From positions 930,001 through 994,000 of the forward strand of contig NC_014761.1 of the NCBI RefSeq assembly GCF_000183745.1: 64,000 nt of DNA, given 5' to 3'. A program made the position numbers and the translations under genes. This document shows positions 2,386 through 62,598 of the stretch, in pieces. How positions within the stretch are numbered: the stretch's first letter is position 1; every line of letters begins with the position of its first letter. This stretch comes from Oceanithermus profundus DSM 14977. Lineage in GTDB: Bacteria > Deinococcota > Deinococci > Deinococcales > Marinithermaceae. The notes beneath the pieces were generated by a model that was given only the letters and a program-made list of their open reading frames with translations, ran no database searches and had not been told where the DNA came from.

Positions 2386-2397
2386 TAAAATGACTAC
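2386..2397 (+). promoter_or_regulatory. Leaderless promoter: TAAAAT then 6 nt to ATG
   Basis: TAAAAT at 2386-2391 is followed by six bases and the ATG at 2398. There is no Shine-Dalgarno sequence. The spacing predicts transcription starting at or next to the A of the ATG. Confidence 0.6.
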
Positions 2398-3150
2398 ATG
2401 AACCTCGCTTTCCGGACGTGGCGCGAAGTCTTCGCGCTGGCGGTGCAGCTCGTCGCTTCCCAGCCGGGGTGGATGGCAGCGCTGGCCGGGTTGGGGGCGC
2501 TTTCCGTCTACTTCCAGCTCGGGGTGCTGCCGGCCGGCCGCGTCGACGCCCGCTTCCTGATCCTGATGGCGCTCCTGCTGGCCTTCGCCCTGGTCACCGC
2601 AGCGCTTACGGTCTTCTGGGTACGCACCGGCGCGAACGCAGGGCGCCTCGACGCGGCGGCCTTTCGCGGGAGCCGGCCCCGGTGGTGGCCCGACCTGGGG
2701 GTGGCCCTCGGGGCGAACCTCGTCTTTCTCGTCTGGGCTGCGCTGTCCGCCGTGCTCGCGTTTTGGCTGTCCGGAACGGCCGTTCGCTGGCTCGGCGTGC
2801 TGTTCGTGAGCGCGGCCGCGCTCTACGAGGCGCCGGCGCGGGCGGAGGCGCGCGGGTTTCGTGAGGGCGTGGCCCTGTTCTGGGGGCGGTTGTTCGCGGG
2901 GAGAAGAATGGACGCGTGGGCGACCGTGCCCTTCTGGTCGGCCGCGTTGCTGCTCCCGGCCTTCGAGGAACTGGCCGGGGCCCTTGCCGCGGCCCCGGGG
3001 GGCGACCCTCCTCCGGCGCTCGGGGTGGGGCCGGTCTTGGTTGGAAGCCTGGTCGAGCCGTTGCGCGTGGCTTTGACCGTCGCCGTTCTCGTGTTCGTCT
3101 ACCGCAGGTTCTGGGCCACAGGCGCCCCGGACGCGCGCCGTCGGGGTTAG
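2398..3150 (+). CDS. Multi-pass membrane protein of unknown function
   Basis: 250 residues with about five or six hydrophobic segments (roughly 17-35, 55-80, 100-125, 130-145, 175-195 and 220-238) and a basic C-terminus (RRFWATGAPDARRRG). It has no enzyme motif I can recognise. A segment ARAEARGFREGVALFWGRL followed by a hydrophobic stretch, and EPLRVALTVAV near the end, resemble ARGFRNALGRLGEAL and EALRGFLTTVI in the next gene. The two may therefore be divergent paralogues. The start is chosen from the leaderless promoter, with the -10 box 6 nt upstream. The two genes lie in the same direction but each has its own -10 box. Function unknown. Confidence 0.75.
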   Translation: MNLAFRTWREVFALAVQLVASQPGWMAALAGLGALSVYFQLGVLPAGRVDARFLILMALLLAFALVTAALTVFWVRTGANAGRLDAAAFRGSRPRWWPDLGVALGANLVFLVWAALSAVLAFWLSGTAVRWLGVLFVSAAALYEAPARAEARGFREGVALFWGRLFAGRRMDAWATVPFWSAALLLPAFEELAGALAAAPGGDPPPALGVGPVLVGSLVEPLRVALTVAVLVFVYRRFWATGAPDARRRG

Positions 3151-3245
3151 CGCCTCGATCTCGGCGCTCCCTGGACCCGGAACGGCCGGGAAGGACCCGC
3201 TGGAACGGGACCGGAGTGTCTCATAAATTGGACCCCTTCCTGTTG

Positions 3246-3257
3246 TATACTATGGAC
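3246..3257 (+). promoter_or_regulatory. Leaderless promoter: TATACT then 6 nt to ATG
   Basis: TATACT at 3246-3251 touches an ATG at 3252, but the next in-frame ATG at 3258 lies exactly 6 nt downstream. That spacing matches the other leaderless genes here and favours 3258 as the start. There is no Shine-Dalgarno sequence. Confidence 0.6.
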
Positions 3258-4079
3258 ATGAAACAAGCAGGCGCAGTTCTCGAACGGACGGTGGGGTATG
3301 CCCTCGCGTTCGCGAGGTACGCGGCCTTCGGTCTGGCGCTGGCGGGGTTCCTTGTCGCGGCCTCGCGCGCGCTCCGAACGCCGATGATCTGGTCCTGGCT
3401 CGCCTCGACCTCGTCCGCCGACGTGAGCGGGCTGGCGCCCCTGGCGTCGCCGCTCAACTGGACGGCTACCTTCGTCGGGTGGTTTGCGGTCGCGGTGATG
3501 GCCTACCTGGTGGTGGGCTGGCTGCAGCGGGCGCTCTCCGGCCGCAAACCGGGGTTCCCGGCCGCGGTCGGCGCGGCGCTCGGGGCCGGCCTGCCGCTGC
3601 TGGCGGTCCAGCTGGCGCTGGGGCTCTTGCTCTGGCTCGCGCCTTTCCCGAGCGCGGTCGGCGTCTACCTGGCTTACCAGGTCGCCGGCCTGGTCGCGCT
3701 GGCGTTGCTGCTGCCGGCCATGGTGTACGCCGCCGTTCACGCCCGCGGGTTCCGGAACGCGCTGGGCCGCCTGGGCGAGGCCCTGTCGGCGTCCGGCTAC
3801 GGCCGCCTCCTGATCCGCCCCGGCTACTGGGCGGCGTTCGCGGTGCTCGCGCTGTGGTTGCTGGCTTCCTCGTGGCTCGGCAGGGTGGGGTTGCAGCTCG
3901 ATCTGGACCGGGCGATCGAGCCGCAGTTCTACGGCTTCCTCTTCGCCGAGGCGCTGCGCGGCTTCCTGACGACGGTGATCGGGCTTCCCATCGTGGCCGC
4001 GGCGCTGCGCAGCGTCTACGACGTGGTCTGGGGTTCGCCCGAATCGGCTAGCGCCACTCCAGCACCCCCTGCCGCCTGA
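3258..4079 (+). CDS. Multi-pass membrane protein of unknown function
   Basis: 273 residues from the ATG at 3258. Hydrophobic segments lie near 14-34, 70-92, 110-130, 140-160, 190-210 and 232-252, and the C-terminus is Ala/Pro-rich. Upstream in-frame codons extend the open frame to 2916, but they overlap the preceding gene and lie upstream of the promoter, so they are excluded. It shares spaced motifs (ARGFR, EALR) with the preceding membrane protein. The last 32 bp overlap the convergent DUF58 gene (4048-4079). No function can be assigned. Confidence 0.75.
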   Translation: MKQAGAVLERTVGYALAFARYAAFGLALAGFLVAASRALRTPMIWSWLASTSSADVSGLAPLASPLNWTATFVGWFAVAVMAYLVVGWLQRALSGRKPGFPAAVGAALGAGLPLLAVQLALGLLLWLAPFPSAVGVYLAYQVAGLVALALLLPAMVYAAVHARGFRNALGRLGEALSASGYGRLLIRPGYWAAFAVLALWLLASSWLGRVGLQLDLDRAIEPQFYGFLFAEALRGFLTTVIGLPIVAAALRSVYDVVWGSPESASATPAPPAA

Positions 4080-4800
4080 GCGCGGGCACGATCGCTTCGC
4101 CCACGCGCAGGTGGGCATAGCCGCCCTGCTCCGCGGCCATTCGGTGCAGGGCGCGGAGGTGCGCGGCCAGCGCTACCCGCCAGGCCGCGAGCGCGGCGCG
4201 GTCCACCCGAACCCGCGTTCCGGTTTCGACGTCGCGCCACTCGGCCTCGTGGGGCGGGGGTTCCAGCTCCTCGGGGGCGAGCACCTGGACAAGGATCGGC
4301 CGGCGGGGGGCCAGCTGGCGCAGGAAGCCGGCCCAGTCGCCCTCGTCGAGGGCGTCGGTGACGAGGACGAGCTGGCCGCGGGCGCGCCTCAGCTCGCCGA
4401 GCGCCGCCATCGGCCCACGGGGATCGGGCGCCAGCCGGGCGTGTTCGGCGGGTTCGCGCAGCCGGCGCGGCCCGGATTCGTCGAGCGCGAAGGTTTCGTC
4501 GGGCAGCGCCGCGGCGAGCAGCACCCGCGCCACCTCGCGGGCGTAGGCGCGCTTGCCGTGGAGGTCCATGCTGGGCGAGCCGTCGAGCCAGAGGGTGAAG
4601 CGGGCCCGCTCCTCGCCTTCCCAGACCCGGGTGTAGAGCCGCCCGGTGCGGGCGTAGGCCTTCCAGTCGACGAAGCGCGGGTCGTCGCCCGGGGTGTAGC
4701 CGCGCAGCTCCATGAAGTCGAGGCTCTCGCCGGCACGGCGGCTCTTGCGCCCTCCCGGGAGCGGCCGGCGCAGGCTCGTGCGGATGCGGTAGCGGAACAC
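4048..4800 (-). CDS. DUF58 domain protein (VWA-like), partner of MoxR ATPase
   Basis: 250 residues. The family hallmark LDFMELRGYTPGDDPRFVDW lies near residues 27-46. A VWA-like metal site follows, LDGSPSMD near 71, in the DxSxS arrangement. DUF58 proteins are nearly always encoded with a MoxR AAA+ ATPase and are thought to work as chaperone-like pairs that mature or insert protein complexes. The gene starts 2 bp after the MoxR stop codon, so the two form an operon. The usual third partner, a transglutaminase-like membrane protein, is absent because the operon ends tail-to-tail against the membrane-protein gene. It lacks the N-terminal membrane segments seen in longer DUF58 proteins, so it is probably soluble. 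Its substrate is unknown. Confidence 0.9.
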   Translation of the reverse strand: MFRYRIRTSLRRPLPGGRKSRRAGESLDFMELRGYTPGDDPRFVDWKAYARTGRLYTRVWEGEERARFTLWLDGSPSMDLHGKRAYAREVARVLLAAALPDETFALDESGPRRLREPAEHARLAPDPRGPMAALGELRRARGQLVLVTDALDEGDWAGFLRQLAPRRPILVQVLAPEELEPPPHEAEWRDVETGTRVRVDRAALAAWRVALAAHLRALHRMAAEQGGYAHLRVGEAIVPALRRQGVLEWR

Positions 4801-4802
4801 GG

Positions 4803-5699: not shown

Positions 5700-5734
5700 G
5701 CCCCGTTATACCCGAAGCCCGGATGAGGCTGGGG

Positions 5735-5740
5735 TAAGCT
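5735..5740 (+). promoter_or_regulatory. -10 box TAAGCT for thymidine kinase
   Basis: TAAGCT at 5735-5740 lies upstream of a GGAGG at 5755-5759. No strong -35 is visible. It is divergent from the MoxR promoter. Confidence 0.4.
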
Positions 5741-6776: not shown

Positions 6777-6801
6777 AGTCTAGCGCCGTTAGGATGGGGG
6801 C
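6777..6801. promoter_or_regulatory. Back-to-back promoters of hsp20 and miaA
   Basis: TAGACT on the minus strand at 6777-6782 serves hsp20. TAGGAT on the plus strand at 6790-6795 lies exactly 6 nt before the miaA GTG at 6802, so miaA looks leaderless. The two -10 boxes are 7 bp apart, so two polymerases could not bind together. Confidence 0.5.
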
Positions 6802-7716
6802 GTGAACCGCGCCGTACCCGTGCTGACGGGACCCAGCGCGAGCGGGAAGTCGTCGCTGGCGCTGTGGCTGGCGGAGCGCTGGCCGCTCGAGGTCGTGAGC
6901 GCGGACGCCACCATGGTCTACCGGGGGCTGGACGTGGGCACCGACAAGCCGTCCGCCGCCGAGCGGGCCCGGGTGCCCCACCACCTGGTGGACGTCGCGC
7001 GGCCCGACGAGGCTTACGACGTGGTGCGCTGGGTGGAGGCGGCCGAGCGCGCGATCGCCGAGGTGCGCGCCCGCGGGCGGATTCCGCTGGTGGTGGGGGG
7101 GACGGTCTACTACCTGCGCGGGCTGTGCGAGGGGCTGCCCACCACCCCGCCGCCCGACGAGGCGGTCCAGCGGGCGATTTGGGCCGAGCTGGAGCGCCGG
7201 GGATCGGAGGCGCTGCTGGCCGAGCTGGCGGCCGCGAGCCCGGCCGACGCGGCGCGGGTGGCCGGCAACCCGCGCCGGCTGGTGCGGGCGCTGGAGGTGC
7301 TCCGGCGCTCGGGACGGCCGCCGGCCGACTTCCCGCCGCGCGCGCCCCGGGTGCGCTGCGCCAAGCTGGTGCTCTGGCCCGAGCGGGCGGCGCTGAAAGA
7401 GAAAGTCTGGGAGCGGGCGCGCTGGCAGTTCGAGCACGGCCTGATCGACGAGGTGCGGGCCCTGCTCGAGCGCTACCCGCGGATGCCCACGGCGCTCCAG
7501 TCCATCGGCTACAAGGAGGTCGTGCGCCACCTGCGGGGCGAATGGAGTTACGAGGAAGCGCTCGAGGCCGACCGGCGCGCGGTCTGGCGGCTGATCAAGC
7601 GCCAGTACACCTGGCTGCGGCGTGAACCGGGCGACGTCGCCTACCTCCCCCGCGCCGGTGCGGCGGCGCGCCGCGGGGCGGCCTTCTGGTTCGAGCGCCG
7701 CTTCGGCCGTCCTTGA
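6802..7716 (+). CDS. miaA: tRNA dimethylallyltransferase MiaA
   Basis: 304 residues. The P-loop GPSASGKS is at 10-17, followed by [42 protein letters not shown], and the C-terminal blocks [10 protein letters not shown] and QYTWLRR. It transfers a dimethylallyl group to A37 of tRNAs reading UNN codons. MiaB, encoded at 45.4-46.7 kb, then methylthiolates that base. The GTG start is supported by a TAGGAT box exactly 6 nt upstream, and no Shine-Dalgarno is present. The position usually occupied by a Ser in the DSxxxY motif is Ala here, a minor variation. Confidence 0.96.
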
Positions 7717-10992: not shown

Positions 10993-11785
10993 GGTGTGGA
11001 GCCTGCCCTTCATGCAGCGGGCGCTGCTCGCGGGCCTGGTCATGGCCCTGCTCGCCGGATACTACGGGCCCTTCGTGGTGCAGCGGGGCCTCAGCTTCCT
11101 CGGTTCGGGCCTGGCCCACGCGGCCTTCGGCGGCGTGGCGCTGGGGTTGCTGCTGGGGCTCGAGCCCCTCTGGGTGGCCGTGCCCTTCACCGCGGCGGTG
11201 GCCCTCGGCATCACCTGGGTGCGCGAGCGCACCCACATCCGCGGCGACACCGCCGTGGGCATCTTCTTCGCCTTCTCCATGGCGCTGGGCATCGTCTTCC
11301 TTTCCCTGAAGCGCGAGTACACCGCCGAGGCCTTCACCTACCTCTTCGGCTCCATCCTGGCGGTCGCCCCGGCCGACCTCTGGGCCAGCCTGGCGCTGCT
11401 CGCCCTCACCGCCCTGACCCTGCCGCTGTGGGGGCGCTGGGCCTACGCCACCTTCGACCGCGAGCTGGCCGCGGCCGACCGGGTGCCCGTCGCCCTCGAC
11501 GACTACCTGCTCGCCTTCCTGGTCGCGCTCGTCGTGGTCGTGGCCATGAAGCTCGTGGGGCTCCTGCTCGTCGCGGCCTTCCTGGTCATCCCCGCGGCGG
11601 CGGCGCGGCAGTGGGCGCGCACCTTCCTGGGGATGGTCGTGGGGGCGGTCCTCGTGGGCACCTTCAGCGTCTTCGCCGGCCTCCTGATCTCGTACGGCTA
11701 CGACCTGCCCAGCGGCGCCACGGTGGTGCTGCTGCAGGCCTTCGTCTTCACCGCCGCGGCGCTGGTGTTTCGCAGGGCCTCGTAA
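10985..11785 (+). CDS. Metal ABC transporter permease (ZnuB/MntB family)
   Basis: 266 residues with about eight membrane segments, of the ABC-3 family. Hallmarks are FLGSGLAHAAFGGVALG near 36-53 and RGDTAVGIFFAFSMALGI near 90-107. It forms the inner-membrane channel for zinc or manganese import with the ATPase encoded upstream. The GTG start overlaps the upstream gene by 8 bp. No periplasmic binding protein (ZnuA/MntC) is encoded in this operon, so it must be elsewhere. Confidence 0.93.
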   Translation: MLEVWSLPFMQRALLAGLVMALLAGYYGPFVVQRGLSFLGSGLAHAAFGGVALGLLLGLEPLWVAVPFTAAVALGITWVRERTHIRGDTAVGIFFAFSMALGIVFLSLKREYTAEAFTYLFGSILAVAPADLWASLALLALTALTLPLWGRWAYATFDRELAAADRVPVALDDYLLAFLVALVVVVAMKLVGLLLVAAFLVIPAAAARQWARTFLGMVVGAVLVGTFSVFAGLLISYGYDLPSGATVVLLQAFVFTAAALVFRRAS

Positions 11786-11793
11786 ACCCGCTA

Positions 11794-11828
11794 TTTACAG
11801 TAGGAATACAAGACATTAAACTGTACGT
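11794..11828 (+). promoter_or_regulatory. Leaderless promoter TTTACA-17-TAAACT before the Rrf2 gene
   Basis: TTTACA at 11794-11799, a 17-bp spacer, then TAAACT at 11817-11822 and exactly 6 nt to the ATG at 11829. This is the clearest complete -35/-10 pair among the leaderless genes of the window. The product may regulate itself here. Confidence 0.75.
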
Positions 11829-12272
11829 ATGTGGGTATCGACGAAGGCGCAGTACGGGCTGCGCGCGCTGGTGGAGATCGGCCTGCGCGGCCCCGATCCG
11901 GTGCCGCTCAAGGAGGTGGCCGAGGCGCAGGGGATCAGCCAGCACTACCTCGAGCAGATCGCGGCGGCGCTGCGGCGTGCCGGTTTCATCCGCAGCGTCC
12001 GCGGGGCGCGCGGCGGCTACCGGCTGGCGCGGCCCCCTGAAGAGATCAACGCGCTCGAGGTCGTCGAGACGATGGAGGGTTCGCTCTCGCCCGTGGGCTG
12101 CATCGAAGACCCGGGCAGCTGCGAACACGAGGGGCAGTGCTCCACCGAGCTGCTCTGGCGGCGCGTGGACCTGGCCATCCGCGAGGTGCTGGGCAGCACC
12201 AACCTGCAGCACCTCATCGACGAACGGCGCCTGATCGAAGCCAAGCGCAAGATGCACGCCGCGGCCTCGTAG
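11829..12272 (+). CDS. Rrf2-family regulator, IscR-like with cluster cysteines
   Basis: 147 residues. The winged helix (1-75) has the family signatures STKAQYGLRAL, ISQHYLEQI and GGYRLARPP. Cys91, Cys98 and Cys104 match the number and spacing of IscR's [2Fe-2S] ligands, so an iron-sulfur or redox sensor is likely. No isc or suf genes adjoin it, so the target is not evident from context. Start chosen from the -10 box 6 nt upstream. A strong hairpin follows the gene. Confidence 0.93.
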   Translation: MWVSTKAQYGLRALVEIGLRGPDPVPLKEVAEAQGISQHYLEQIAAALRRAGFIRSVRGARGGYRLARPPEEINALEVVETMEGSLSPVGCIEDPGSCEHEGQCSTELLWRRVDLAIREVLGSTNLQHLIDERRLIEAKRKMHAAAS

Positions 12273-16820: not shown

Positions 16821-18694
16821 CACCGCACCCTCTCCGAAGCGCAGTGGACGGGCTCGAGCCGTACGGGCAGGTAGAAGACCAAGAACTCCAGGCCGCCCCC
16901 GTCCCCGTCCGACCGCTCGATCCACGCGTACGGTTCGGGCGCCTGGGTCAGGTAGTTGAGGCCCTCGGGCAGGATGCGGTAGAGGTTGCCGCTCTGCCCG
17001 TTCAGGGCGTAGCGACCGTCGCTCCAGTAAGGAACGAGCAGGGCCTCTTCGTCGCCTGGGCAGTCGAGGGTGCGGGGATCGGGGCGATGGAAGAGCAGCA
17101 CGGCTTCGAGCGGACCCCGGGGTTCGACCCCGGCCTCACGGAAGCGGGTAGCGGCCGCGCCGGCGCTGCGCACGGGGTCGGGGGTGCGGCAGGCCGCCAG
17201 CATTTCTCCGAAGCCGCCCGCCTCGTCCTGTACGGGAACGCTCGCCATGAGGACGCAGCGCCCCTTTTCGTCGACCAGCTCGGTGTAGTACCGCGAGACG
17301 AAGAGGCCCCGGGTGAACGTCCAGACTCGCTGTCGGGCCTCTTCGAGCGTAAGGGCGGGGGTGCCCAGAGGGACGCGCATCCGGTCCCGGGCGACGGCGT
17401 CGAGGGCCAGGTCAACGAGCGGATCGTTCGGCGGGTTCTCGGGCAGGCGCACCAGCGAACGCACGAAGTAGGGCTCGCGCAGCTGCAGGACGTCCATTAC
17501 CGGCGTTTCCTCGGGAAGGGCCGCCAGCGCCTCGAGCGCCCAGGGCGGCAGGCGCTCGCCGAAGATCGAGCGCAGCATGCCCACGTCACTGCGAAAAAGA
17601 AAGCCGTCCTCGAATCGACGGCGCGCCGCTTCGGGCGTCGGACGGTCCGGACCGCCCTGTGCCAGTTGCCGCTCCAGGAGGGCGCTGCGTTTTCGGGCGG
17701 ACATCACCGAGGCGGGTAGCCGGCCTTGCGGCCGGGTCCCCTCGTAGTCGTCGCGCTGGGGGTCGCCGCAGCCTACGAGCTTGAAGAAACCCGGGTAGAC
17801 CGGCGTGATCTGCCGGGGGTCTTCGTCGGGTACCTGCACGTACTGCACGGCGTAGCGCAGCCTTCCGGCGAGCCGCTTCAGATCATCGAACGGTTGGGTG
17901 AGCCGGTAGACGTTGCCGCTGGCCACTCCGACGGCGTGCACCCCGTCGGTCCAGACGCCCAGGCGTCCGTCACCGAAGGTGTTGGCCGCGTCGCAGGCGC
18001 CCAGGGGCCGGAGATTGGCCGGACCGGGCAGGAAGGCGGCCACAAGGCCGCGAACGGGTTCGAGGCCTTCCTCGGCCAGCCGTTTGCGGGCGTCGGCCTC
18101 GCCAAGGTACGGATAGTTGCGCTGGCAGCTGGTCACGGTTCGGACGAGGCTGCCCGGATGCTTCCAGGCGGGCACGACGACCGTGCCCACGCACTCCCCG
18201 CGGGCGTTGAAGAGCGGCACCACGTAACGCGGGCCCGCTCGGGTGAGCACGTCCCTCCAGTACCAGGTCTTGGCCAACTCGAGCCAGCGGTCGAAGCCCT
18301 CTTGCCCCGCTTCGATCCCGTTGCGCGCCAGAAAACGCTTGGCCTTGTCGGCGAGCAGGCGGCGGATGCGGGCGTCGGGCGGCGGAGGCGTGTCCCTGCG
18401 GAGGGGTGCGTCCACGTAGAGCGGCTCGCCCGGCCTGAAGCGCGGCTCGCCCTCCCGGACCGGGCCGAGGTTCTCGAAACGGCGCAGGTAGGACTGCGGC
18501 AGCTCCGCGTACAACGCCGCCAGGTCCTCGACGTCGACGTCCAGCGCCAGGGCCAGGGCGTCTTCAGGGGTGCGCGGCTCGATTCCCTGGCGGGCGCTCT
18601 GCTCGAGCACTTCGAGGCCCCAAGGGTCGTTGGCGAGGGCCAAGGAAAATACGAGCCCAGCCCATAGAAGGATAAGTAACTTGATTGTTTTCAT
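16820..18694 (-). CDS. Secreted protein of unknown function, paralogue of the downstream gene
   Basis: 624 residues with a signal peptide (hydrophobic 6-21, then ANDPW). It has the same two-module architecture as its coupled neighbour. The first module runs from PLYVDAPLRRDTPPPPDAR through WYWRDVLTRAGPRYVVPLFN to VWTDGVHAVG...GNVYRL. The second has RVWTFTRGLFVSRYYTELVD and YWSDGRYALN...SGNLYRIL. The C-terminus VRLEPVHC parallels LRLEPENC in the neighbour. The start is fixed by a TAGCAT box exactly 6 nt upstream on the minus strand, with no Shine-Dalgarno. Function unknown; both gene copies have kept the same length and module order. Confidence 0.82.
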   Translation of the reverse strand: MKTIKLLILLWAGLVFSLALANDPWGLEVLEQSARQGIEPRTPEDALALALDVDVEDLAALYAELPQSYLRRFENLGPVREGEPRFRPGEPLYVDAPLRRDTPPPPDARIRRLLADKAKRFLARNGIEAGQEGFDRWLELAKTWYWRDVLTRAGPRYVVPLFNARGECVGTVVVPAWKHPGSLVRTVTSCQRNYPYLGEADARKRLAEEGLEPVRGLVAAFLPGPANLRPLGACDAANTFGDGRLGVWTDGVHAVGVASGNVYRLTQPFDDLKRLAGRLRYAVQYVQVPDEDPRQITPVYPGFFKLVGCGDPQRDDYEGTRPQGRLPASVMSARKRSALLERQLAQGGPDRPTPEAARRRFEDGFLFRSDVGMLRSIFGERLPPWALEALAALPEETPVMDVLQLREPYFVRSLVRLPENPPNDPLVDLALDAVARDRMRVPLGTPALTLEEARQRVWTFTRGLFVSRYYTELVDEKGRCVLMASVPVQDEAGGFGEMLAACRTPDPVRSAGAAATRFREAGVEPRGPLEAVLLFHRPDPRTLDCPGDEEALLVPYWSDGRYALNGQSGNLYRILPEGLNYLTQAPEPYAWIERSDGDGGGLEFLVFYLPVRLEPVHCASERVR

Positions 18695-18706
18695 GCCAGC
18701 ATGCTA
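18695..18706 (-). promoter_or_regulatory. Leaderless promoter: TAGCAT then 6 nt to ATG
   Basis: TAGCAT on the minus strand (18701-18706), then six bases to the ATG at 18694. No Shine-Dalgarno and no obvious -35. Confidence 0.5.
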
Positions 18707-28690: not shown

Positions 28691-28960
28691 TTAGTAAACG
28701 TGAAACCCCTCCAGCCCCACCGGGTCGCTCCACTGGACCTCGACTTCCTCAACCTTGGACAGGCGCGGGCCCTGGCGGAGGAAGTGCAGGAAGTGTTCCA
28801 GCGCGTCTTCGGGTCCTTCGGCCACCACTTCCACCCGGCCGTCGGGCAGGTTCTCGGCGTAGCCGGCCAGGCCCAGCTCCATGGCGTGCTTGCGGGCGAA
28901 GGCGCGATAGCCCACGCCCTGCACCCGGCCGGAAACGAGGGCGACGATGCGGCGCTTCAT
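28691..28960 (-). CDS. acyP: Acylphosphatase
   Basis: 89 residues, the normal size. The N-terminal signature is [14 protein letters not shown] with catalytic Arg19, and the second is [17 protein letters not shown] with catalytic Asn37. It hydrolyses acyl phosphates in the cytoplasm; the physiological substrate is usually unknown. The start is supported by a TAATCT box on the minus strand (28967-28972) exactly 6 nt upstream, with no Shine-Dalgarno. It is divergent from the TamB-like gene. Confidence 0.95.
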
Positions 28961-28972
28961 GGCCCTAGATTA
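28961..28972 (-). promoter_or_regulatory. Leaderless promoter: TAATCT then 6 nt to ATG (acyP)
   Basis: TAATCT on the minus strand at 28967-28972, six bases, then the acyP ATG at 28960. Confidence 0.55.
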
Positions 28973-29007
28973 CGTGAAAACCTTCATCTATCCCAGCCGC
29001 CGCCGGA

Positions 29008-29019
29008 TACGATAGGAAC
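29008..29019 (+). promoter_or_regulatory. Leaderless promoter: TACGAT then 6 nt to GTG (tamB-like)
   Basis: TACGAT at 29008-29013 followed by six bases and the GTG at 29020. The six bases (AGGAAC) end only one base before the start codon, too close to serve as a ribosome-binding site. Confidence 0.55.
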
Positions 29020-42456: not shown

Positions 42457-42490
42457 GGGCCGCCGCCCGCGGGCGGCGGCCCTTCGCTTT
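42457..42490 (+). terminator. Terminator of the thiol redox operon
   Basis: A 26-bp perfect palindrome (42457-42482), GGGCCGCCGCCC paired with its complement, followed by TTCGCTTT. Confidence 0.8.
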
Positions 42491-42501
42491 AGGATGGGGT
42501 C
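42490..42501 (+). promoter_or_regulatory. Leaderless promoter: TAGGAT then 6 nt to ATG
   Basis: TAGGAT at 42490-42495 and six bases to the ATG at 42502. It begins right at the end of the preceding terminator, so there is no room for a normal -35 outside the hairpin. Confidence 0.5.
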
Positions 42502-44094
42502 ATGGATCCGACCCGCTACCCCTACCCCTCCCGAAAGCACGTGCTCTTCGGCGCCCGCGGCGCGGTGGCCACCAGCCAGCCGCTTGCCGCCTCGGCAGGG
42601 CTGCGGATGCTCGATCGCGGCGGCGGCGCGGTCGACGCCGCCGTGGCCATGGCCGCGGCGCTCGTGGTGGTCGAGCCCACCTCCAACGGCCTGGGCTCGG
42701 ACGCCTTCGCGATCGTCGCCGATGGGGGCGAGGTCTTCGGGTTGAACGCCTCCGGCCCCAGCCCCCGGGCGCTGCCGGCGGAGCGTTGGCTGGGGGATGC
42801 GGCGATGCCGCGCTGGGGGTGGCCGTCCGTAACCGTGCCCGGCGCGGTGGCGGCCTGGGCGGCCCTGCACGAGCGCTGGGGCCGGCTGCCTTGGGACCAG
42901 GTGCTGGCTCCTGCGATCCGCTACGCCGAGGAAGGATTCCCGGTCTCGCCGGAGACGGCCCGCGCCTGGCGGCGCGCCGCCCGCGCCTACCGCGACCTCG
43001 AGGGCGAGGTCCACGCCTACTTCCTCGAGACCTTCTTTGCAGGAGGCCGCGCCCCCGAACCCGGCGAGGTCTGGCGCAATCCCGACCTGGCCGCGAGCCT
43101 GCGCCGCATCGCCGAGGAGGGCCCCGGCTGGTTCTACAGGGGCGGCTTCGCAGCGGCGCTCGAGCGCTTCGCCCGCGCGACCGGGGGTTACCTGCGCACG
43201 GAGGACCTGGCGAGCTATGCGCCCGAGTGGGTGGCGCCGCTCCGGGCCCGCTGGGGCGAACTCGAAGTCCTCGAGCTGCCCCCCAACGGTCAGGGGGTGG
43301 CCGCGCTGCTCGCCCTCGAGATTCTGCGCCACCTGCCCCTCGAGGGGCACCCCCGCGAGTCGGTGGAGGCCTACCACCTGCAGATCGAGGCCATGAAGCT
43401 GGCCTTCGCCGACGTGCGCGCCCACGTGACCGACCCGGCCCGGATGCGCCTGCCGGCCCTGGCCCTGCTCGACGAGGCCTACGCGCGCGAGCGCGCGCGC
43501 CTCGTGGGGCGCGAGGCCATGGCGCCGCCGCCGAGCGGGCTTCCCCGAGGGGGCACGGTTTACCTGGCGGCGGCGGCCGGGGGGCAGTCGGTCAGCTTCA
43601 TCCAGTCGAACTACATGGGCTTCGGCGCGGCCGTGGCCGTGCCCGGAACCGGCGCGGCCCTGCAGAACCGCGGGGCGGGGTTCGCAACCGACCCCGACCA
43701 CCCGAACCGCGTCGCCCCGGGCAAGCGCCCCTACCACACGATCATCCCGGGCTTCTTCGCCAAGGAAGGCCGGCCCTGGGGGCCCTTCGGGCTGATGGGC
43801 GGGTTCATGCAGCCCCAGGGGCACCTGCAGCTGGCCCTCAACCTGGCCCTCTTCGACCTGAACCCCCAGAGCGCCCTCGACGCGCCGCGCTGGCAGGTGG
43901 CCGATGGGGGCGAGGTCTGGCTCGAGCAAGCCGTCCCCCAGCACGTGGCCCAGGGGTTGGCCGACCGGGGCCACGCGGTGCGCGTCTTCGCCGAGGGGGG
44001 CCCGTTCGGCAAAGGGCAGATCCTGTTGCGCGAGGGCGGCGTCTGGTGGGCCGCCAGCGAGCCGCGCGCCGACGGCCAGGCCCAGGTGCTCTAG
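42502..44094 (+). CDS. ggt: Gamma-glutamyltransferase-family protein
   Basis: 530 residues. Family blocks are GARGAVATSQPLAASAGLRML, DRGGGAVDAAVAMAAAL and EPTSNGLGSDAF. The autoprocessing/nucleophile region is PRGGTVYLAAAAGGQSVSF, where the Thr is the expected N-terminus of the small subunit. Then QSNYMGFGAAVAVPGTG and ALQNRGAGF follow. Members hydrolyse or transfer gamma-glutamyl groups from glutathione-like compounds. No signal peptide is present, so it appears cytoplasmic, unlike classical GGT. Because this phylum uses bacillithiol rather than glutathione, its true substrate is uncertain; cephalosporin acylase-like homologues exist. The 3' end overlaps the convergent FAD gene by 4 bp. Confidence 0.85.
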   Translation: MDPTRYPYPSRKHVLFGARGAVATSQPLAASAGLRMLDRGGGAVDAAVAMAAALVVVEPTSNGLGSDAFAIVADGGEVFGLNASGPSPRALPAERWLGDAAMPRWGWPSVTVPGAVAAWAALHERWGRLPWDQVLAPAIRYAEEGFPVSPETARAWRRAARAYRDLEGEVHAYFLETFFAGGRAPEPGEVWRNPDLAASLRRIAEEGPGWFYRGGFAAALERFARATGGYLRTEDLASYAPEWVAPLRARWGELEVLELPPNGQGVAALLALEILRHLPLEGHPRESVEAYHLQIEAMKLAFADVRAHVTDPARMRLPALALLDEAYARERARLVGREAMAPPPSGLPRGGTVYLAAAAGGQSVSFIQSNYMGFGAAVAVPGTGAALQNRGAGFATDPDHPNRVAPGKRPYHTIIPGFFAKEGRPWGPFGLMGGFMQPQGHLQLALNLALFDLNPQSALDAPRWQVADGGEVWLEQAVPQHVAQGLADRGHAVRVFAEGGPFGKGQILLREGGVWWAASEPRADGQAQVL

Positions 44095-51070: not shown

Positions 51071-52162
51071 TCAGGCGGTCAGGTCGGCGAACTGCCGCGC
51101 CGTGCGCCCCGAGAACCCGCGGCCTTCCATGGCGAAGCGCAGCGCCTCCGCGCGGGTGGCCTCGTCCAGTTCCTCGCGCCCCAGGTGCCGGGCCACCGCC
51201 CGCAGGTAGAGCTTCTGGTCGAAGGGGGGAAAGGTGAGCTGCAAGCCGAAACGGTCGGCGAGGGCCAGCTTTTCCTGGACCCCGTCCCAGGCGGCGGGCT
51301 CGGCGTCGGGGTCGGGCCGGTCGCTCCAGCGTTCGCGGATCAGGTTCTTGCGGTTCGAGGTGGCGACGAAGAGGACGTTGTCCGGGGCGGCCCAGACCGC
51401 GCCGTCGAGGAGCAGCTTCAGCTTGCGCCAGCCGGGGTCGGCGGCGTCGTAGGCCAGGTCGTCGATGTAGAGCACGAAGCGCTGGGGCAGGCCGCGCACC
51501 CGCTCGAGCAGAGAGGGCAGGCGCTCCAGCCCTTCGGGCAGCACCTCCACCAGCCGCAGCCCCCGCTCGGCGTAGCGGGTGCGCAGCGCCTTGACCGCGG
51601 TGGACTTGCCGGTGCCGCGCGCGCCGTAGAGGAGCACCGGGAGCGCGGGCTTGCCGCTCAGGAAGCGTTCGACGTTGGCGCGCAGGCGCGCGAGCTGGGG
51701 CTCGTAACCGACGAGCACCCCCTCGTCGGCAGGGTCCGGGTGGGGAACGGGCTCGAGCGCCCCGGTCCATACGAAGGCGCTGTAGAGCGCGAACGGCGCG
51801 TGGCCGTGGGTGCGAAAGAGTTCCACCAGGTTCTCCGCGCCGCCTTGGTCGAGCACCTCGAGCGCCGCCCACTCGGCGGCCAGCGCTTCCCGGCAGCCCA
51901 GGTCCGAAAGCGCGTGGCTCGCCTGCAGCCAGGAGCGCAGGGCGCGCAGGCGTTCCAGGTCCTCGTCGACGAGGCGCAGCAGTCCTGCGGGGGTGCCGTC
52001 CAAAAACCGCCGCGCCAGCGCCTCGGCCCCGAAGAGCGCCCGTGCGAGCAGCCAGCCCCAGGGGTCGCCGTGGGGCAGGGGCTCGGCGAGCAGGGCGCGG
52101 ACCGGGTCGGGCCCCAGCAACCCTTCGGGCAGCGGGATCAGCCGCGGCGGCTCGGGCGTCAT
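51071..52162 (-). CDS. DUF815-family ATPase
   Basis: 363 residues. The AAA-type Walker A is YGARGTGKST near 195-204, a Walker B-like FVLYIDDLAYD follows, and the sensor-like block is VLFVATSNRKNLI. The N-terminal ~170 residues are helical and Leu-rich. This is the pattern of DUF815, a widespread ATPase family without a settled function. The start is supported by TAGAAT exactly 6 nt upstream on the minus strand (52169-52174). It lies just downstream of tRNA-Lys and its terminator, so it has its own promoter. Confidence 0.9.
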   Translation of the reverse strand: MTPEPPRLIPLPEGLLGPDPVRALLAEPLPHGDPWGWLLARALFGAEALARRFLDGTPAGLLRLVDEDLERLRALRSWLQASHALSDLGCREALAAEWAALEVLDQGGAENLVELFRTHGHAPFALYSAFVWTGALEPVPHPDPADEGVLVGYEPQLARLRANVERFLSGKPALPVLLYGARGTGKSTAVKALRTRYAERGLRLVEVLPEGLERLPSLLERVRGLPQRFVLYIDDLAYDAADPGWRKLKLLLDGAVWAAPDNVLFVATSNRKNLIRERWSDRPDPDAEPAAWDGVQEKLALADRFGLQLTFPPFDQKLYLRAVARHLGREELDEATRAEALRFAMEGRGFSGRTARQFADLTA

Positions 52163-52174
52163 GGCCCCATTCTA
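52163..52174 (-). promoter_or_regulatory. Leaderless promoter: TAGAAT then 6 nt to ATG
   Basis: TAGAAT on the minus strand at 52169-52174, six bases, then the ATG at 52162. It sits between the tRNA terminator and the DUF815 gene. Confidence 0.6.
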
Positions 52175-54573: not shown

Positions 54574-54623
54574 ATTCTACGACCCGTTTGTTGGACAGGC
54601 GTCCTAGGCGCTAGGATGCGGGC
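54574..54623. promoter_or_regulatory. Divergent promoters of fumC and ypdA
   Basis: TAGAAT on the minus strand (54574-54579) serves fumC. On the plus strand TAGGAT (54612-54617) lies exactly 6 nt before the ypdA ATG at 54624, with a TTGGAC 15 bp upstream (54591-54596). ypdA therefore looks leaderless, while fumC has a leader with a ribosome-binding site. Confidence 0.55.
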
Positions 54624-55595
54624 ATGTCGTTCGTGGACGTGGTGATCGTCGGCGCGGGGCCGGTGGGGCTGGCCGCCGCGCTCGAGGCGGAGCGGTTCGG
54701 GCTGAGCGGCGTCGTCTTCGAGGCGCGCCGGCCGGCCGCGAGCATCGAGGGGTTTCCCGCCCGCATGCCCTTCTTTTCCGAGGCGCGCAAGATCGAGATC
54801 GGCGGTCACCCCATGGCCGTCCTCGGGGCCAAGCCCACGCGCGAGGAGGCGCTGGTCTACTACCGGCGCCTCGCCGAGCGGCTGCGCGCGCCCCTGGTCC
54901 ACCGCACCCGCGTGACCGCCGTCGAGGGGGCGCGGGACGCCTTCCGCGTCCGGTTCGAGGGGCCCCGCGGTCCGGGCGAGGTCTGGGGGCGCACGGTGGT
55001 CGTGGCCACGGGCTACTTCTTCAACCCCCGGCGGCTGGGCGTACCCGGGGAGGAGGAGCCGATGGTCCGCTACGGCTACCGGGACGCGCTCGAGCACTGG
55101 GGGGAGCGGGTCGTGGTGGTCGGGGGCTCGAACAGCGCGGTGGAGGCCGCGCTCGACCTCTGGCGTGCGGGGGCGCGGGTTACGCTGGTGCACCGCGGCG
55201 AGGCGCTGCGCCCGGGCGTGAAGTACTGGTTGCGGCCCGACTTCGAGAACCGGGTGCGCGAGGGCGCGATCGCGGCCCGTTTCGCCACCCGGGTGCGGCG
55301 GTTCGAGCCCGGCCGGGTCGTGGTGGCGGGGCCCGGGGGCGAGGAGGCGCTCGAGGCCGACCGGGCGATCGTCCTCATCGGTTACCGCGCCGACGACGCG
55401 CTGCTGCGCACCGCGGGGGTCCGTTACGAGGGCGGCCGGCCGCGGCTCTCGGAGACCTTTGAGACGAGCGTGCCCGGCCTCTACGCCCTCGGAAGCGCGG
55501 GGTACGGCGAGGACGCCCGCAGCGTTTTCATCGAGAACGGACGCGAGCACGCCCGGATCGCCGTGGCCGCGATCGCCCGCGGTCTGGGCCGCTGA
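54624..55595 (+). CDS. ypdA: YpdA-type bacillithiol disulfide reductase
   Basis: 323 residues. FAD motif VVIVGAGPVGLAAALEAERFG (6-26), NADPH motif VVVVGGSNSAVEAALDLWRAG, the VVATGYFFNP and VPGEEEP blocks, and C-terminal SVFIENGREHARIA. It resembles thioredoxin reductase but lacks its CxxC, as YpdA does. YpdA reduces oxidised bacillithiol with NADPH, which fits a member of the Deinococcota. The genes for bacillithiol synthesis are not in the window. A strong bidirectional hairpin follows the gene. Confidence 0.9.
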   Translation: MSFVDVVIVGAGPVGLAAALEAERFGLSGVVFEARRPAASIEGFPARMPFFSEARKIEIGGHPMAVLGAKPTREEALVYYRRLAERLRAPLVHRTRVTAVEGARDAFRVRFEGPRGPGEVWGRTVVVATGYFFNPRRLGVPGEEEPMVRYGYRDALEHWGERVVVVGGSNSAVEAALDLWRAGARVTLVHRGEALRPGVKYWLRPDFENRVREGAIAARFATRVRRFEPGRVVVAGPGGEEALEADRAIVLIGYRADDALLRTAGVRYEGGRPRLSETFETSVPGLYALGSAGYGEDARSVFIENGREHARIAVAAIARGLGR

Positions 55596-57280: not shown

Positions 57281-58837
<1,557 letters not shown>

Positions 58838-58848: not shown

Positions 58849-58992
58849 TTACCGCAGCAAAAGCCCCAGGCCCCAGATCGCGAGCGCCGCCAGGCCGACG
58901 ATGATCAACACGGGAACGAGTACGAGCTGGTACGTTGCGATTACCAGTGCTAAGAAATCTTTCCAGTCGGGCTTGATTTCTTTGGGGTCCAT
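58849..58992 (-). CDS. 47-residue single-pass or hairpin membrane protein
   Basis: A short open frame, ATG at 58992 to TAA at 58849. The N-terminal half is charged (MDPKEIKPDWKDF) and the rest strongly hydrophobic (LALVIATYQLVLVPVLIIV, then GLAALAIWGLGLLL), ending in Arg. Support for it being real is a TACAAT box exactly 6 nt before the ATG on the minus strand, the same spacing as the other leaderless genes, and a codon third-position GC bias like its neighbours. It fills the gap upstream of the mutase gene. Function unknown; it could be a small regulator or membrane-complex subunit. Confidence 0.65.
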   Translation of the reverse strand: MDPKEIKPDWKDFLALVIATYQLVLVPVLIIVGLAALAIWGLGLLLR

Positions 58993-59004
58993 AGTGGTAT
59001 TGTA
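58993..59004 (-). promoter_or_regulatory. Leaderless promoter: TACAAT then 6 nt to ATG
   Basis: TACAAT on the minus strand at 58999-59004, six bases, then the ATG of the 47-residue gene at 58992. Confidence 0.55.
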
Positions 59005-59341: not shown

Positions 59342-59351
59342 CCTCCGTAGG

Positions 59352-59380
59352 TTGCAAGTAGTAACTACTTGCAGTAAGAT
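59352..59380 (+). promoter_or_regulatory. ZIP transporter promoter TTGCAA-17-TAAGAT with palindromic operator
   Basis: TTGCAA (59352-59357), 17 bp, TAAGAT (59375-59380), 8 nt before the ATG. A 21-bp perfect palindrome (59353-59373; arms TGCAAGTAGT and ACTACTTGCA around one A) covers the -35 and the spacer. A protein bound there would block polymerase. The adjacent winged-helix protein and the Fur-family protein at 9.8 kb are both candidates. Confidence 0.8.
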
Positions 59381-59388
59381 ACCTCCCT

Positions 59389-60129: not shown

Positions 60130-61262
60130 CCTGCGAGCACGCGCTCGGTGTCGAGCGCGATCGCGAGCTCCTCGTCGGTGGGGATCACCCAGACCGAGAC
60201 CCGGCTGCCTTCGCGGGTGATGCGGGGGCCGCCGCGGGCGTTGGCTTCGCGGTCCAGTTCGATGCCCAGGAACTCGAGCCCCTCGAGCGCCTGCGCCCGC
60301 ACCACCGGGTCGTTCTCGCCCACGCCCGCGGTGAAGGCCACCGCGTCGAGGCCGCCCATCGCGGCGGCGTAGGCCCCCAGGTACTTCTTGATCCGGTAGC
60401 AGTAGACTTCCAGCGCCAGGGCCGCGTGCGCGTCCCCTTCGGCGATCCTGCGGTGGACGTCGCGCAGGTCGGAGTGCCCGGCCAGCCCCAGCATCCCGCT
60501 CTCCTTGTTGAGCAGGCGGTCCGTGGCCTCGACCCCGTGGCGGCGCACGAGCTCGAGCACCAAGCCGGGGTCGAGGTCGCCGCTGCGGCTGCCCATGACC
60601 AGCCCCTCCATCGGGGTGAAGCCCATGCTGGTATCGACGCTGCGCCCGAAACGGACCGCGGTGGCCGAGGCGCCGTTGCCCAGGTGCAGGACGACGACGC
60701 GCAGTTCCTCGAGGGGTCGCCCCAGGGCCTGGGCGAGCTTGCCGGAGACGTAGCGGTGCGAGGTGCCGTGAAAACCGTAGCGGCGGTAGCGCCGCTCGTC
60801 GGCCAGCCGGCGCGGGAGCGCGTAGCGCCAGGCCCGCTCGGGAAGGCTCTGGTGGAAGGCGGTGTCGAAGACGGCCACCTGGGGGAGCTGCGGCAGCGCG
60901 GCCAAGGCGGCGCGGATGCCCGCCAGGTTCGCGGGGTTGTGCAGGGGCGCCAGCGGGACGAAGGCCTCGAGGCGCTCGAGCACCTCGTCGGTGATGCGGC
61001 TCGAGGCGGTGAAGTCGCCCCCGTGCACCACCCGGTGACCGACGGCTTCGACCAGGTCGAGGTCGAGGCGGCGCAGCACCGCGTCCAGGGCCTCGGCGTG
61101 GTCGGCAGCGGCGACGGCCTCGGTCCGGCCTTCGACGGTCAGCTGCGCCTGCGGGAGCCCGATGCGCTCGACCAGGCCCCGCAGACGGTGGCGGTGCGCG
61201 CGGGTGTCCGTCAGCGAGAACTTGAGGCTCGACGATCCGGCGTTGAGTACCAGGACGTTCAT
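60108..61262 (-). CDS. ackA: Acetate kinase
   Basis: 384 residues. N-terminal MNVLVLNAGSSSLKFSL, then GHRVVHGG, the GFHGTSHRYVS block, VDTSMGFTPMEGLVMGSRSGDLDP and TAGVGENDPVVR. It interconverts acetate and acetyl phosphate with ATP. No pta (phosphotransacetylase) adjoins it. Overlaps the ZIP gene tail-to-tail by 22 bp. Confidence 0.97.
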   Translation of the reverse strand: MNVLVLNAGSSSLKFSLTDTRAHRHRLRGLVERIGLPQAQLTVEGRTEAVAAADHAEALDAVLRRLDLDLVEAVGHRVVHGGDFTASSRITDEVLERLEAFVPLAPLHNPANLAGIRAALAALPQLPQVAVFDTAFHQSLPERAWRYALPRRLADERRYRRYGFHGTSHRYVSGKLAQALGRPLEELRVVVLHLGNGASATAVRFGRSVDTSMGFTPMEGLVMGSRSGDLDPGLVLELVRRHGVEATDRLLNKESGMLGLAGHSDLRDVHRRIAEGDAHAALALEVYCYRIKKYLGAYAAAMGGLDAVAFTAGVGENDPVVRAQALEGLEFLGIELDREANARGGPRITREGSRVSVWVIPTDEELAIALDTERVLAGQPPSST

Positions 61263-61329
61263 GCCCTCACCCTAATCCACCCGGGGCGGGCGGGGCCGCG
61301 GCTTTGCGTCCTTTTTCATCTGGGATGCG

Positions 61330-61341
61330 TATACTGCTCAC
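61330..61341 (+). promoter_or_regulatory. Leaderless promoter: TATACT then 6 nt to ATG
   Basis: TATACT at 61330-61335, six bases, then the ATG at 61342; no ribosome-binding site. Confidence 0.6.
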
Positions 61342-61986
61342 ATGCAACGAGCCATCTTTCTTATGGTCCTGGGCATCGCCATACTGCTTGGGGGCGGCCT
61401 ATGGTACCTGAGCAGCGCGCCGAAACAGGCGACTGCCGAAGCGGACCCCGCCGCCGGAGCCCACTTCGTCTACGGCAGCCCCGACGCCCCGGTCACCGTC
61501 GTGGAGTTTTCGAACTACCTCTGCCCCCACTGCAAGGACCACTCCGAGAAGAGCCTGCCCCGCATCTTCGCGGACTACGTGGACACCGGCAAGGTGCGCT
61601 ACATCTTCCGCGACTTCCCCTTCGCGGGTCAGGACAACGTCATCCTCGCCGGCGAAGCGGCCGCCTGCGCCGCCGATCAGGGCCGCTACTACGACTACCA
61701 CCAGCTCCTCTTCCGCGCCACCGGGCAGTGGGGCCGCGTGCCCACCAGCGAGCTGCCCTCGTTCTTCTCCGATTACGCCCGGCAGCTGGGCCTGGACACC
61801 GCGCGCTTCGACGCCTGCCTGAGCAGCCACGAGAAGCGCCCGCTGGTGCTCGCCGACCAGGAGCTCACCCGCAAGCTCGGCCTCGGCGGCACCCCCTCCT
61901 TCTTCGTCAACGGCAAGTTCATTGAGGGCTTCCGCCCGTACGACGAGTGGAAGAAGATCCTCGACGAGGCGCTCGCCGGCAACTGA
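61342..61986 (+). CDS. DsbA-like thiol:disulfide oxidoreductase
   Basis: 214 residues. N-terminal membrane anchor (about 4-24), then a thioredoxin fold with helical insertion: EFSNYLCPHCKDH (Cys61, Cys64) and the cis-Pro segment GTPSFFVNGKFIEG. Forms disulfides in secreted proteins. The CPHC dipeptide is the same as in E. coli DsbA, which favours an oxidase. No partner VKOR or DsbB is adjacent. A terminator follows. Confidence 0.93.
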   Translation: MQRAIFLMVLGIAILLGGGLWYLSSAPKQATAEADPAAGAHFVYGSPDAPVTVVEFSNYLCPHCKDHSEKSLPRIFADYVDTGKVRYIFRDFPFAGQDNVILAGEAAACAADQGRYYDYHQLLFRATGQWGRVPTSELPSFFSDYARQLGLDTARFDACLSSHEKRPLVLADQELTRKLGLGGTPSFFVNGKFIEGFRPYDEWKKILDEALAGN

Positions 61987-62006
61987 ACCGGGTTCCCCGT
62001 GCACGC

Positions 62007-62040
62007 GCCCCCGCCGGTCTCGCGGCGGGGGCGTTTCTCT
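62007..62040 (+). terminator. Terminator of the DsbA-like gene
   Basis: GCCCCCGCC (62007-62015) and GGCGGGGGC (62024-62032) form a 9-bp stem, followed by GTTTCTCT. Confidence 0.85.
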
Positions 62041-62052
62041 GGACTCGCGGAG

Positions 62053-62586
62053 CTAGAAGACGGTCACTTCGGCGACCATCTGGGTGAAGTCGAAGGTGAC
62101 CCCCGTGGCCGCGCCCGAGGTGACCTCGGCGCCGATCCAGATCCGACCCTGGTTGATGCCGTCGGCGAGCACCTCGGGGTTGGGGTCGCCCAGCGTCACC
62201 TGCTGCGTTTCGCCGTTGGCGAAGGAGTACTCGCCGCTGATGGGGGTCTCCCCGGCAGCGTCGCAGATCCAGGCGAGGCCCGCATCGGTGCAGCCGGCCG
62301 CTCCGGGATCGGCGGTGCGGGCGTAGAAGGTCATCACCAGCGGCGCCTGGACCGCGGTGTAGCTCACGGTGACCTGGCCGCTGAGGCGGATCGTCTTGAC
62401 GTCGACCACGGGCCGGTCGAACTGCGCCGCGTTCTTGGGGTAGACGACCTGCCCCGCGGTGTTGCCCACCGCGTCCACGGAGATGCTGAAGTCCTCCAGG
62501 GGGACGGTGAGCGGGGCCTTGGAGCAGGCGGCGAGGGCCGCGGCGAGCGCCAGCAGCAGTGCGGAGGTGCGCAGGAGGGTCTTCAT
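62053..62586 (-). CDS. Lipoprotein of unknown function
   Basis: 177 residues. Lipoprotein signal with ALAAC, lipidated Cys near residue 21, then a beta-rich body with alternating hydrophobic residues (TIRLSGQVTVSYTAVQ, LVMTFYAR) and two further cysteines. No named family recognised. The start is set by TATGAT exactly 6 nt upstream on the minus strand (62593-62598); the 12 upstream codons of the open frame precede the promoter and are excluded. It sits between the DsbA-like gene and pyrD but on its own promoter. Confidence 0.8.
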   Translation of the reverse strand: MKTLLRTSALLLALAAALAACSKAPLTVPLEDFSISVDAVGNTAGQVVYPKNAAQFDRPVVDVKTIRLSGQVTVSYTAVQAPLVMTFYARTADPGAAGCTDAGLAWICDAAGETPISGEYSFANGETQQVTLGDPNPEVLADGINQGRIWIGAEVTSGAATGVTFDFTQMVAEVTVF

Positions 62587-62598
62587 GGCCCCATCATA
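62587..62598 (-). promoter_or_regulatory. Leaderless promoter: TATGAT then 6 nt to ATG
   Basis: TATGAT on the minus strand at 62593-62598, six bases, then the lipoprotein ATG at 62586. Confidence 0.6.

What the first reader, a model, noticed from the sequence alone, without database searches (positions are those of the whole stretch)
2386..62598. A strict leaderless promoter grammar: TANNNT, exactly 6 nt, start codon
At least 13 genes on both strands have a TANNNT box whose last base is exactly 6 nt before the ATG or GTG, with no Shine-Dalgarno. Box ends nearest the start codon are 2391, 3251, 6795, 11822, 18701(-), 28967(-), 29013, 42495, 52169(-), 54617, 58999(-), 61335 and 62593(-). Genes with a GGAGG instead have the box further upstream. 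Most of these lack a recognisable -35; the Rrf2 gene (TTTACA-17-TAAACT) is the best exception. Leaderless mRNAs with a -10 box next to the start codon are known to be common in Deinococcus. Here the rule also fixes gene starts (for example 3258, not 3252) and reveals a small gene.
Basis: partly seen in the sequence, partly recalled or inferred. Interest (0 to 1): 0.75.

Follow-up and report, generated by a model that had tools for sequence, protein, structure and literature searches.

The report
Leaderless gene starts beside -10 boxes
In this heat-loving bacterium many genes have their RNA polymerase box six letters before the start codon, so the messenger probably begins right at the gene; the pattern is real, but it is already published for this phylum.

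Summary
All 13 boxes sit at the stated coordinates, exactly 6 nt before ATG/GTG; a 14th was missed (start 61262, minus). In an 864-kb sample of the 2.44-Mb genome, starts chosen blind to upstream sequence have TANNNT at spacing 6 in 100 of 820 genes; dinucleotide shuffles give 4.4 (maximum 12 in 200). Best reading: -10 boxes of sigma-A promoters that make leaderless mRNAs. Support: G at -6 (72%), pyrimidine at -1 (101 of 110), ATG/GTG but no TTG excess, Shine-Dalgarno in 3 of 110, no -35 signal, placement at heads of transcription units; the rrf2 box is at 6 nt in 30 of 30 loci. 'Strict' is too strong: spacing 7 holds 32 of 820. By genome and plasmid length the organism is Oceanithermus profundus. 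The kind is published: TANNNT next to start codons in Deinococcus-Thermus (PMC3160421; PMC12340547). What is added is base-level detail for this genus. No call held transcript data; that transcription starts on the start codon is inferred.

The parts
2386..2400 (+). TAAAAT box, 6 nt, ATG of gene 2398-3150 (no Pfam match)
3246..3260 (+). TATACT box, 6 nt (atggac), ATG of gene 3258-4079; 3258 preferred to the in-frame ATG at 3252
   Evidence: relatives L208-L210; the blind caller chose 3291
6790..6804 (+). TAGGAT box, 6 nt, GTG of miaA (IPP transferase)
   Evidence: among 14 alignable relatives spacing 6 in 4 and 7 in 10
11817..11831 (+). TAAACT box, 6 nt, ATG of the Rrf2 regulator; TTTACA 17 nt upstream
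   Evidence: spacing 6 in 30 of 30 loci, own included
18692..18706 (-). TAGCAT box, 6 nt, ATG of gene 16820-18694
   Evidence: the blind caller chose 18643
28958..28972 (-). TAATCT box, 6 nt, ATG of acylphosphatase gene; divergent from the next
29008..29022 (+). TACGAT box, 6 nt, GTG of the 2686-aa gene 29020-37080
42490..42504 (+). TAGGAT box, 6 nt, ATG of gamma-glutamyltranspeptidase gene
   Evidence: spacing 6 in 4 of 20 alignable loci, own included; 12 of 20 have no box
52160..52174 (-). TAGAAT box, 6 nt, ATG of DUF815 AAA gene
   Evidence: spacing 6 in 8 of 10 alignable loci, own included
54612..54626 (+). TAGGAT box, 6 nt, ATG of FAD oxidoreductase gene
   Evidence: among 11 loci with 41% identity or more: spacing 6 in 5, 7 in 6
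58990..59004 (-). TACAAT box, 6 nt, ATG of the 47-aa gene
58849..58992 (-). small gene, 47 aa, hydrophobic, next to a methylmalonyl-CoA mutase gene (57281-58837)
61260..61274 (-).
61330..61344 (+). TATACT box, 6 nt, ATG of DsbA/thioredoxin-like gene 61342-61986
   Evidence: the blind caller chose 61363
62584..62598 (-). TATGAT box, 6 nt, ATG of gene 62053-62586

Best explanation
The boxes are -10 elements of ordinary sigma-A promoters placed so that transcription begins on the first base of the start codon. RNA polymerase recognises T-12, A-11 and T-7 and often G-6, without needing a -35 element, and starts at the purine of ATG or GTG after a pyrimidine at -1. The mRNA has no leader and the ribosome starts at its 5' ATG or GTG without Shine-Dalgarno pairing. 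Shown here: motif, spacing, base preferences, start codons, gene context, conservation. Inferred: the transcription start site, use of sigma-A, and leaderless translation. Spacing-7 genes either start 7 nt below the box or carry a one-base leader.
For: Spacing 6 in 100 of 820 genes against 4.4 by shuffle, spacing 7 in 32. TAY boxes, which cannot be in-frame stop codons, peak at 6 too (23 of 820; at most 8 at any spacing from 0 to 40 outside 5-7). At spacing 6: -1 pyrimidine in 101 of 110 against 56% of 646 genes without a box, and G-6 in 72%. TTG: 2 of 365 candidates at spacing 6, no excess. SD in 3 of 110 against 344 of 646. Heads of transcription units. TANNNT-6-RTG inside genes lacks the -1 pyrimidine: 6 of 16 in frame, 1 of 4 in another frame, 7 of 18 antisense. 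rrf2 spacing 6 in 30 of 30 loci while box and spacer letters vary. Thermus RNA polymerase reads A-11, T-7 and G-6 (PMC4593229, passages). In D. radiodurans the same motif was mutated, bound by RpoD and worked without a -35 (PMC12340547).
Against: No call held mapped transcript ends for this organism. 17 of 110 spacing-6 and 17 of 56 spacing-7 genes lie 25 nt or less below a co-directional gene and could be co-transcribed. Conservation is uneven: for gamma-glutamyltranspeptidase 12 of 20 loci have no box. The Rrf2 gene does have a -35-like TTTACA. Two of the eight relatives examined, those of family f3, show no -1 pyrimidine preference at spacing 6 (40% of 20, 58% of 12), nor does G057 (58% of 19).
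Confidence: 0.94

Rival explanations
1. The TANNNT motif is a translation signal read by the ribosome in place of Shine-Dalgarno, on mRNAs with leaders.
For: It is near the start codon and nearly excludes SD (3 of 110).
Against: It avoids operon-internal positions (17 of 110 against 207 of 340 for SD genes), where a translation signal would be needed as much; the -6 G next to it matches an RNA polymerase contact; in D. radiodurans an RBS could not replace it and mutations cut RNA levels (PMC12340547).
Confidence: 0.03
2. Artefact: in-frame TAA/TAG stops at -12 together with AT-rich intergenic DNA make the pattern, since ORFs are listed from the first start after a stop.
For: Spacing 6 puts TAR boxes in frame as stop codons; 80 of 110 boxes are TAR.
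Against: TAY boxes peak at 6 (23) as well; spacing 7 is out of frame, has 23 TAR of 32 and is also enriched; spacings 3 and 9, also in frame, have 2 and 12 boxes; only 9 of 80 TAR boxes are the stop of an upstream called gene; shuffles give 4.4.
Confidence: 0.01
3. Classical -10/-35 promoters with very short leaders, for which the -35 was missed.
For: rrf2 has TTTACA-17-TAAACT; one other gene of 110 has 5 of 6 matches to TTGACA at spacer 16-18.
Against: -35 matches do not exceed shuffles (6 of 110 with 4 or more, shuffled 10.8) and no spacer between 15 and 19 stands out.
Confidence: 0.02

Closest known systems
-10-motif genes of Deinococcus-Thermus (PMC12340547, Life Sci Alliance 2025)
   Same: TANNNT about 6-7 bp before the ORF, no classical -35 for most, leaderless mRNA, start codons re-annotated, reported in every species of the phylum that they analysed
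   Different: Oceanithermus is not named in the main text held (supplements not seen). The word pyrimidine and a TTG start do not occur in the main text; placement relative to neighbouring genes was not met in the sections read.
TA-led genes (PMC3160421, BMC Genomics 2011)
   Same: TANNNT about 12 bp upstream counted from the first T, read as leaderless; Deinococcus-Thermus highest among bacteria, about 40% of genes in five genomes
   Different: Oceanithermus not named in the main text. The TANNNT excess here is lower, about 15% of genes at spacings 6 and 7.
Leaderless RTG starts of mycobacteria (PMC4633059)
   Same: ATG or GTG at +1, preferred -1 cytosine, small proteins revealed (passages)
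   Different: Another phylum; there mapped by transcript ends and ribosome profiling.

Membership tests
Deinococcus-Thermus -10-adjacent leaderless genes | TANNNT 6-7 nt before the start codon, far above chance | tested here: met
   100 and 32 of 820 at spacings 6 and 7, shuffle 4.4
Deinococcus-Thermus -10-adjacent leaderless genes | No Shine-Dalgarno | tested here: met
   3 of 110 against 344 of 646
Deinococcus-Thermus -10-adjacent leaderless genes | No classical -35 in most genes | tested here: met
   6 of 110 with 4 or more matches, shuffled 10.8
Deinococcus-Thermus -10-adjacent leaderless genes | Organism belongs to the phylum | tested here: met
   all 15 miaA loci found are Thermaceae bins or Thermus; genome and plasmid lengths equal those of Oceanithermus profundus
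Deinococcus-Thermus -10-adjacent leaderless genes | About a third of ORFs | tested here: inconclusive
   excess of about 123 of 820 (15%) for TANNNT at 6 and 7 with blind starts, a lower bound
Deinococcus-Thermus -10-adjacent leaderless genes | Transcription starts at the start codon | not testable with these tools
   needs 5'-end mapping; -1 pyrimidine and -6 G agree with it
Classical -10/-35 sigma-70 promoters with leaders | -35 hexamer about 17 nt above the -10 | tested here: not met
   no excess over shuffles for the set; rrf2 alone has a plausible one in the window

The most novel reading that the evidence does not exclude
Gene starts would then be tuned to polymerase start-site selection.
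Probability: 0.25. Interest if true: 0.45.

Novelty: already known. Interest (0 to 1): 0.2.

Why it matters
It gives a sequence rule that fixes gene starts and finds small genes in a clade where Shine-Dalgarno-based callers can go wrong, and it extends a published rule, with base-level detail, to Oceanithermus. It does not reveal a new mechanism.

Tried and rejected
Selection against stray boxes in coding sequence: TANNNT in 817 coding sequences is 0.74 (sense) and 0.69 (antisense) of synonymous shuffles, but sense TANNNA is 0.77, so this looks like general avoidance of TA, not of the box. TANNNT-6-RTG inside genes is not depleted (21 against 17.6 sense, 12 against 14.9 antisense), while spacings 5, 7 and 8 are low (6 against 10.8, 14 against 23.1, 3 against 8.9); I have no explanation for that contrast and the counts are small. 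Hidden internal leaderless genes: of 179 TANNNT-6-RTG sites in the sample 110 are at called gene starts; the sites inside or antisense to genes lack the -1 pyrimidine (14 of 38 in all); of 31 outside called genes 24 have it, and a few of these are probably starts that the caller missed.

An operator at rrf2: the region round TTTACA (AAACCC...TATTTACAGTAGGAATACA) is nearly constant in six loci of the genus, own included, and I first read an inverted repeat in it and in other relatives. A search with 9-base arms found none of 28 distinct upstream regions beyond shuffles; the operator idea is dropped.

Extended -10 (TG): 12 of 110, expected 10.3. Lineage differences in spacing: 6:7 counts are own 101:31, G007 13:12, G049 17:6, G053 33:19, G043 22:9, G033 13:14, G057 15:11, G019 16:6, G032 11:10; p against own 0.03, 0.79, 0.10, 0.50, 0.005, 0.06, 0.79, 0.03, uncorrected for eight tests. 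E. coli control: 38 genes, none at spacing 6 with blind starts, one RTG candidate; small. A search for the GGGA motif with Thermus aquaticus found no paper.

Dropped rows: 33 of 853 called genes lacked a closed 5' end or upstream sequence. Searches use slightly different gene training (820 and 829 genes; 100 and 101 at spacing 6). In one search, 14 loci with an unaligned N-terminus and 2 without a hit were set aside.
Full report
What was checked. Each of the 13 boxes was read at its coordinate: 13 of 13 are TANNNT followed by 6 nt and ATG (11) or GTG (2). The window is bases 930001-994000 of contig C2 of a genome of 2,439,291 bases in 2 contigs; C1 has 135,351 bases. The abstract of PMC3111992 gives the same genome and plasmid lengths for Oceanithermus profundus 506T, and the 15 miaA loci found in named genomes are Thermaceae bins or Thermus. 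So the organism belongs to Deinococcus-Thermus, on the Thermus side.

Is it more than chance. I took 40 stretches of 20 kb and the window, 864 kb, and called genes by codon usage alone, blind to upstream sequence: 853 genes, 820 usable. TANNNT by spacing to the chosen start: 4 nt 5, 5 nt 14, 6 nt 100, 7 nt 32, 8 nt 12, 9 nt 12; dinucleotide-preserving shuffles of the upstream 60 nt give 4.4 at spacing 6 (SD 2.1, maximum 12 of 200). Because spacing 6 puts TAA/TAG of a box in frame as a stop codon, I split the boxes: TAC/TAT boxes alone also peak at 6 (23), and the out-of-frame spacing 7 has a similar share of TAR (23 of 32) to spacing 6 (77 of 100). Among all candidate starts near the gene 5' end, 110 genes have ATG/GTG at spacing 6 and 56 at spacing 7; TTG shows 2 of 365, no excess.

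Base preferences. At spacing 6, with the start codon as +1, the box by definition occupies T-12 A-11 ... T-7; G is at -6 in 72%, G leads at -5 to -2, and -1 is C in 75% and T in 16% (101 of 110 pyrimidine), against 56% pyrimidine in 646 genes without a box. Thermus RNA polymerase is described as recognising A-11, T-7 and G-6 (PMC4593229, passages). This register puts the start site on the start codon. Among 56 spacing-7 genes, 30 have the pyrimidine at -1 and 17 have pyrimidine-purine at -2/-1, as if with a one-base leader; 9 have neither. No -35 signal: 6 of 110 have 4 or more matches to TTGACA at spacers 15-19, shuffled 10.8. SD is in 3 of 110.

Promoter, not ribosome signal. Spacing-6 genes have a divergent upstream neighbour in 53 of 110, SD genes in 52 of 340; a co-directional neighbour within 25 nt in 17 of 110 against 207 of 340 (p 2e-17). 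SD genes with a divergent neighbour at least 60 nt away carry a TANNNT 15-59 nt upstream in 26 of 46 (shuffled 14.9, SD 2.9), SD genes within 25 nt of a co-directional neighbour in 20 of 205 (shuffled 30.4, SD 4.5). TANNNT-6-RTG sites inside or antisense to genes lack the -1 pyrimidine (14 of 38).

Conservation (own genome included where it was hit; starts were sought within 20 codons of the expected place, so a few weak rows may be chance). rrf2: spacing 6 in 30 of 30, with box letters TAAACT, TACACT, TATACT, TAAAAT, TAAGAT, TACAAT, TAGAAT, TATAAT. miaA: spacing 6 in 4 Thermaceae bins and 7 in 10 Thermus, of 14 alignable. DUF815: 8 of 10 at 6, 2 none. Acylphosphatase: 9 of 18 at 6, 4 at 7, 2 at 8, 3 none. 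DsbA-like: 4 of 14 at 6, 2 at 7, 1 at 5, 1 at 9, 6 none, 4 of those with an SD-like motif. FAD oxidoreductase: 5 of 21 at 6, 6 at 7, 10 none, the last being homologues of 34% identity or less, probably paralogues. Gamma-glutamyltranspeptidase: 4 of 20 at 6, 4 at other spacings, 12 none, 7 of those with an SD-like motif at a nearby start. Gene 3258: 3 of 4 at 6, 1 at 7. Small gene: 13 of 22 at 6, 3 at 7, 2 at 9, 4 none. Genes thus keep, shift or lose the box.

Gene starts and the small gene. In-frame ATG codons exist at 3252 and 3258; two of three relatives lack the first one and have a box 6 or 7 nt before the second, which favours 3258; the blind caller chose 3291, so codon usage does not decide it. 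The 47-aa gene at 58849-58992 has no Pfam or NCBIfam match at E 0.001, is found in 35 of 61 genomes, own included, keeps a KPDWKDF-like motif before a hydrophobic stretch in the 24 loci read, own included, and lies next to a methylmalonyl-CoA mutase gene in 22 of those 24.

Comparison with print. PMC3160421 (abstract and passages) already gave TANNNT about 12 bp upstream of the start as the sign of leaderless genes, highest among bacteria in Deinococcus-Thermus. PMC12340547 (introduction, first two of three parts of the results, section on the phylum, discussion) reports the motif 6-7 bp before the ORF, in all species of the phylum analysed, with mutation, RpoD binding and reporter tests, function without a -35, and corrected starts. 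The D. deserti paper of 2014 that it cites is not held. A search for Oceanithermus with leaderless found one paper (PMC8072749, listing only, not opened). The kind is known; the member is expected. The -1 and start-codon preferences parallel mycobacteria (PMC4633059, passages).

Lineages. The same caller on ten 20-kb stretches of each of eight relatives finds an excess at spacing 6 in all eight (11 to 33 genes against backgrounds of 0.8 to 2.2), though in G033 spacing 7 is one gene higher. The 6:7 ratio is highest in Oceanithermus (101:31), hardly different in G049 (17:6) and G019 (16:6), and near one in G007, G033 and G032; the -1 pyrimidine at spacing 6 is 89-100% in five of the six f1 and f4 relatives, 58% in the sixth (G057), and 40% and 58% in the two f3 genomes. 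From contig lengths I recall G007 as Marinithermus hydrothermalis, G033 as Meiothermus ruber and G019 as Truepera radiovictrix; no call names them. These samples are small and I treat this as a lead.

Noticed in passing
58849-58992 (-): Conserved 47-aa hydrophobic protein with a KPDWKDF motif, no Pfam or NCBIfam match, next to a methylmalonyl-CoA mutase gene in 22 of 24 loci; perhaps a small partner of the mutase operon.
   Followed up: partly
11784-11816 (+): A stretch above the rrf2 box that includes TTTACA is nearly constant across six loci of the genus, own included, while relatives outside the genus have other sequence there; no significant inverted repeat was found.
   Followed up: partly
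28958-29022: Two leaderless promoters back to back in a 59-bp intergenic gap (acylphosphatase and the 2686-aa protein); a second such pair lies at 61260-61344.
   Followed up: no
G019 and G032 stretches (L221-L230, L282-L291): In the two f3 genomes the -1 pyrimidine goes with spacing 7 (89% of 9, 75% of 16) rather than 6 (40% of 20, 58% of 12).
   Followed up: no
L046-L055: In 10 Thermus miaA loci the box (TAGCAT) lies 7 nt from the GTG, and in nine of them the letters overlap an out-of-frame ATG (aaggg-ATG-TG).
   Followed up: no
coding sequence of the 864-kb sample: TANNNT followed by RTG inside genes is at expectation for spacing 6 (21 against 17.6) but low for spacings 5, 7 and 8 (23 against 42.8 together); unexplained, small counts.
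   Followed up: no
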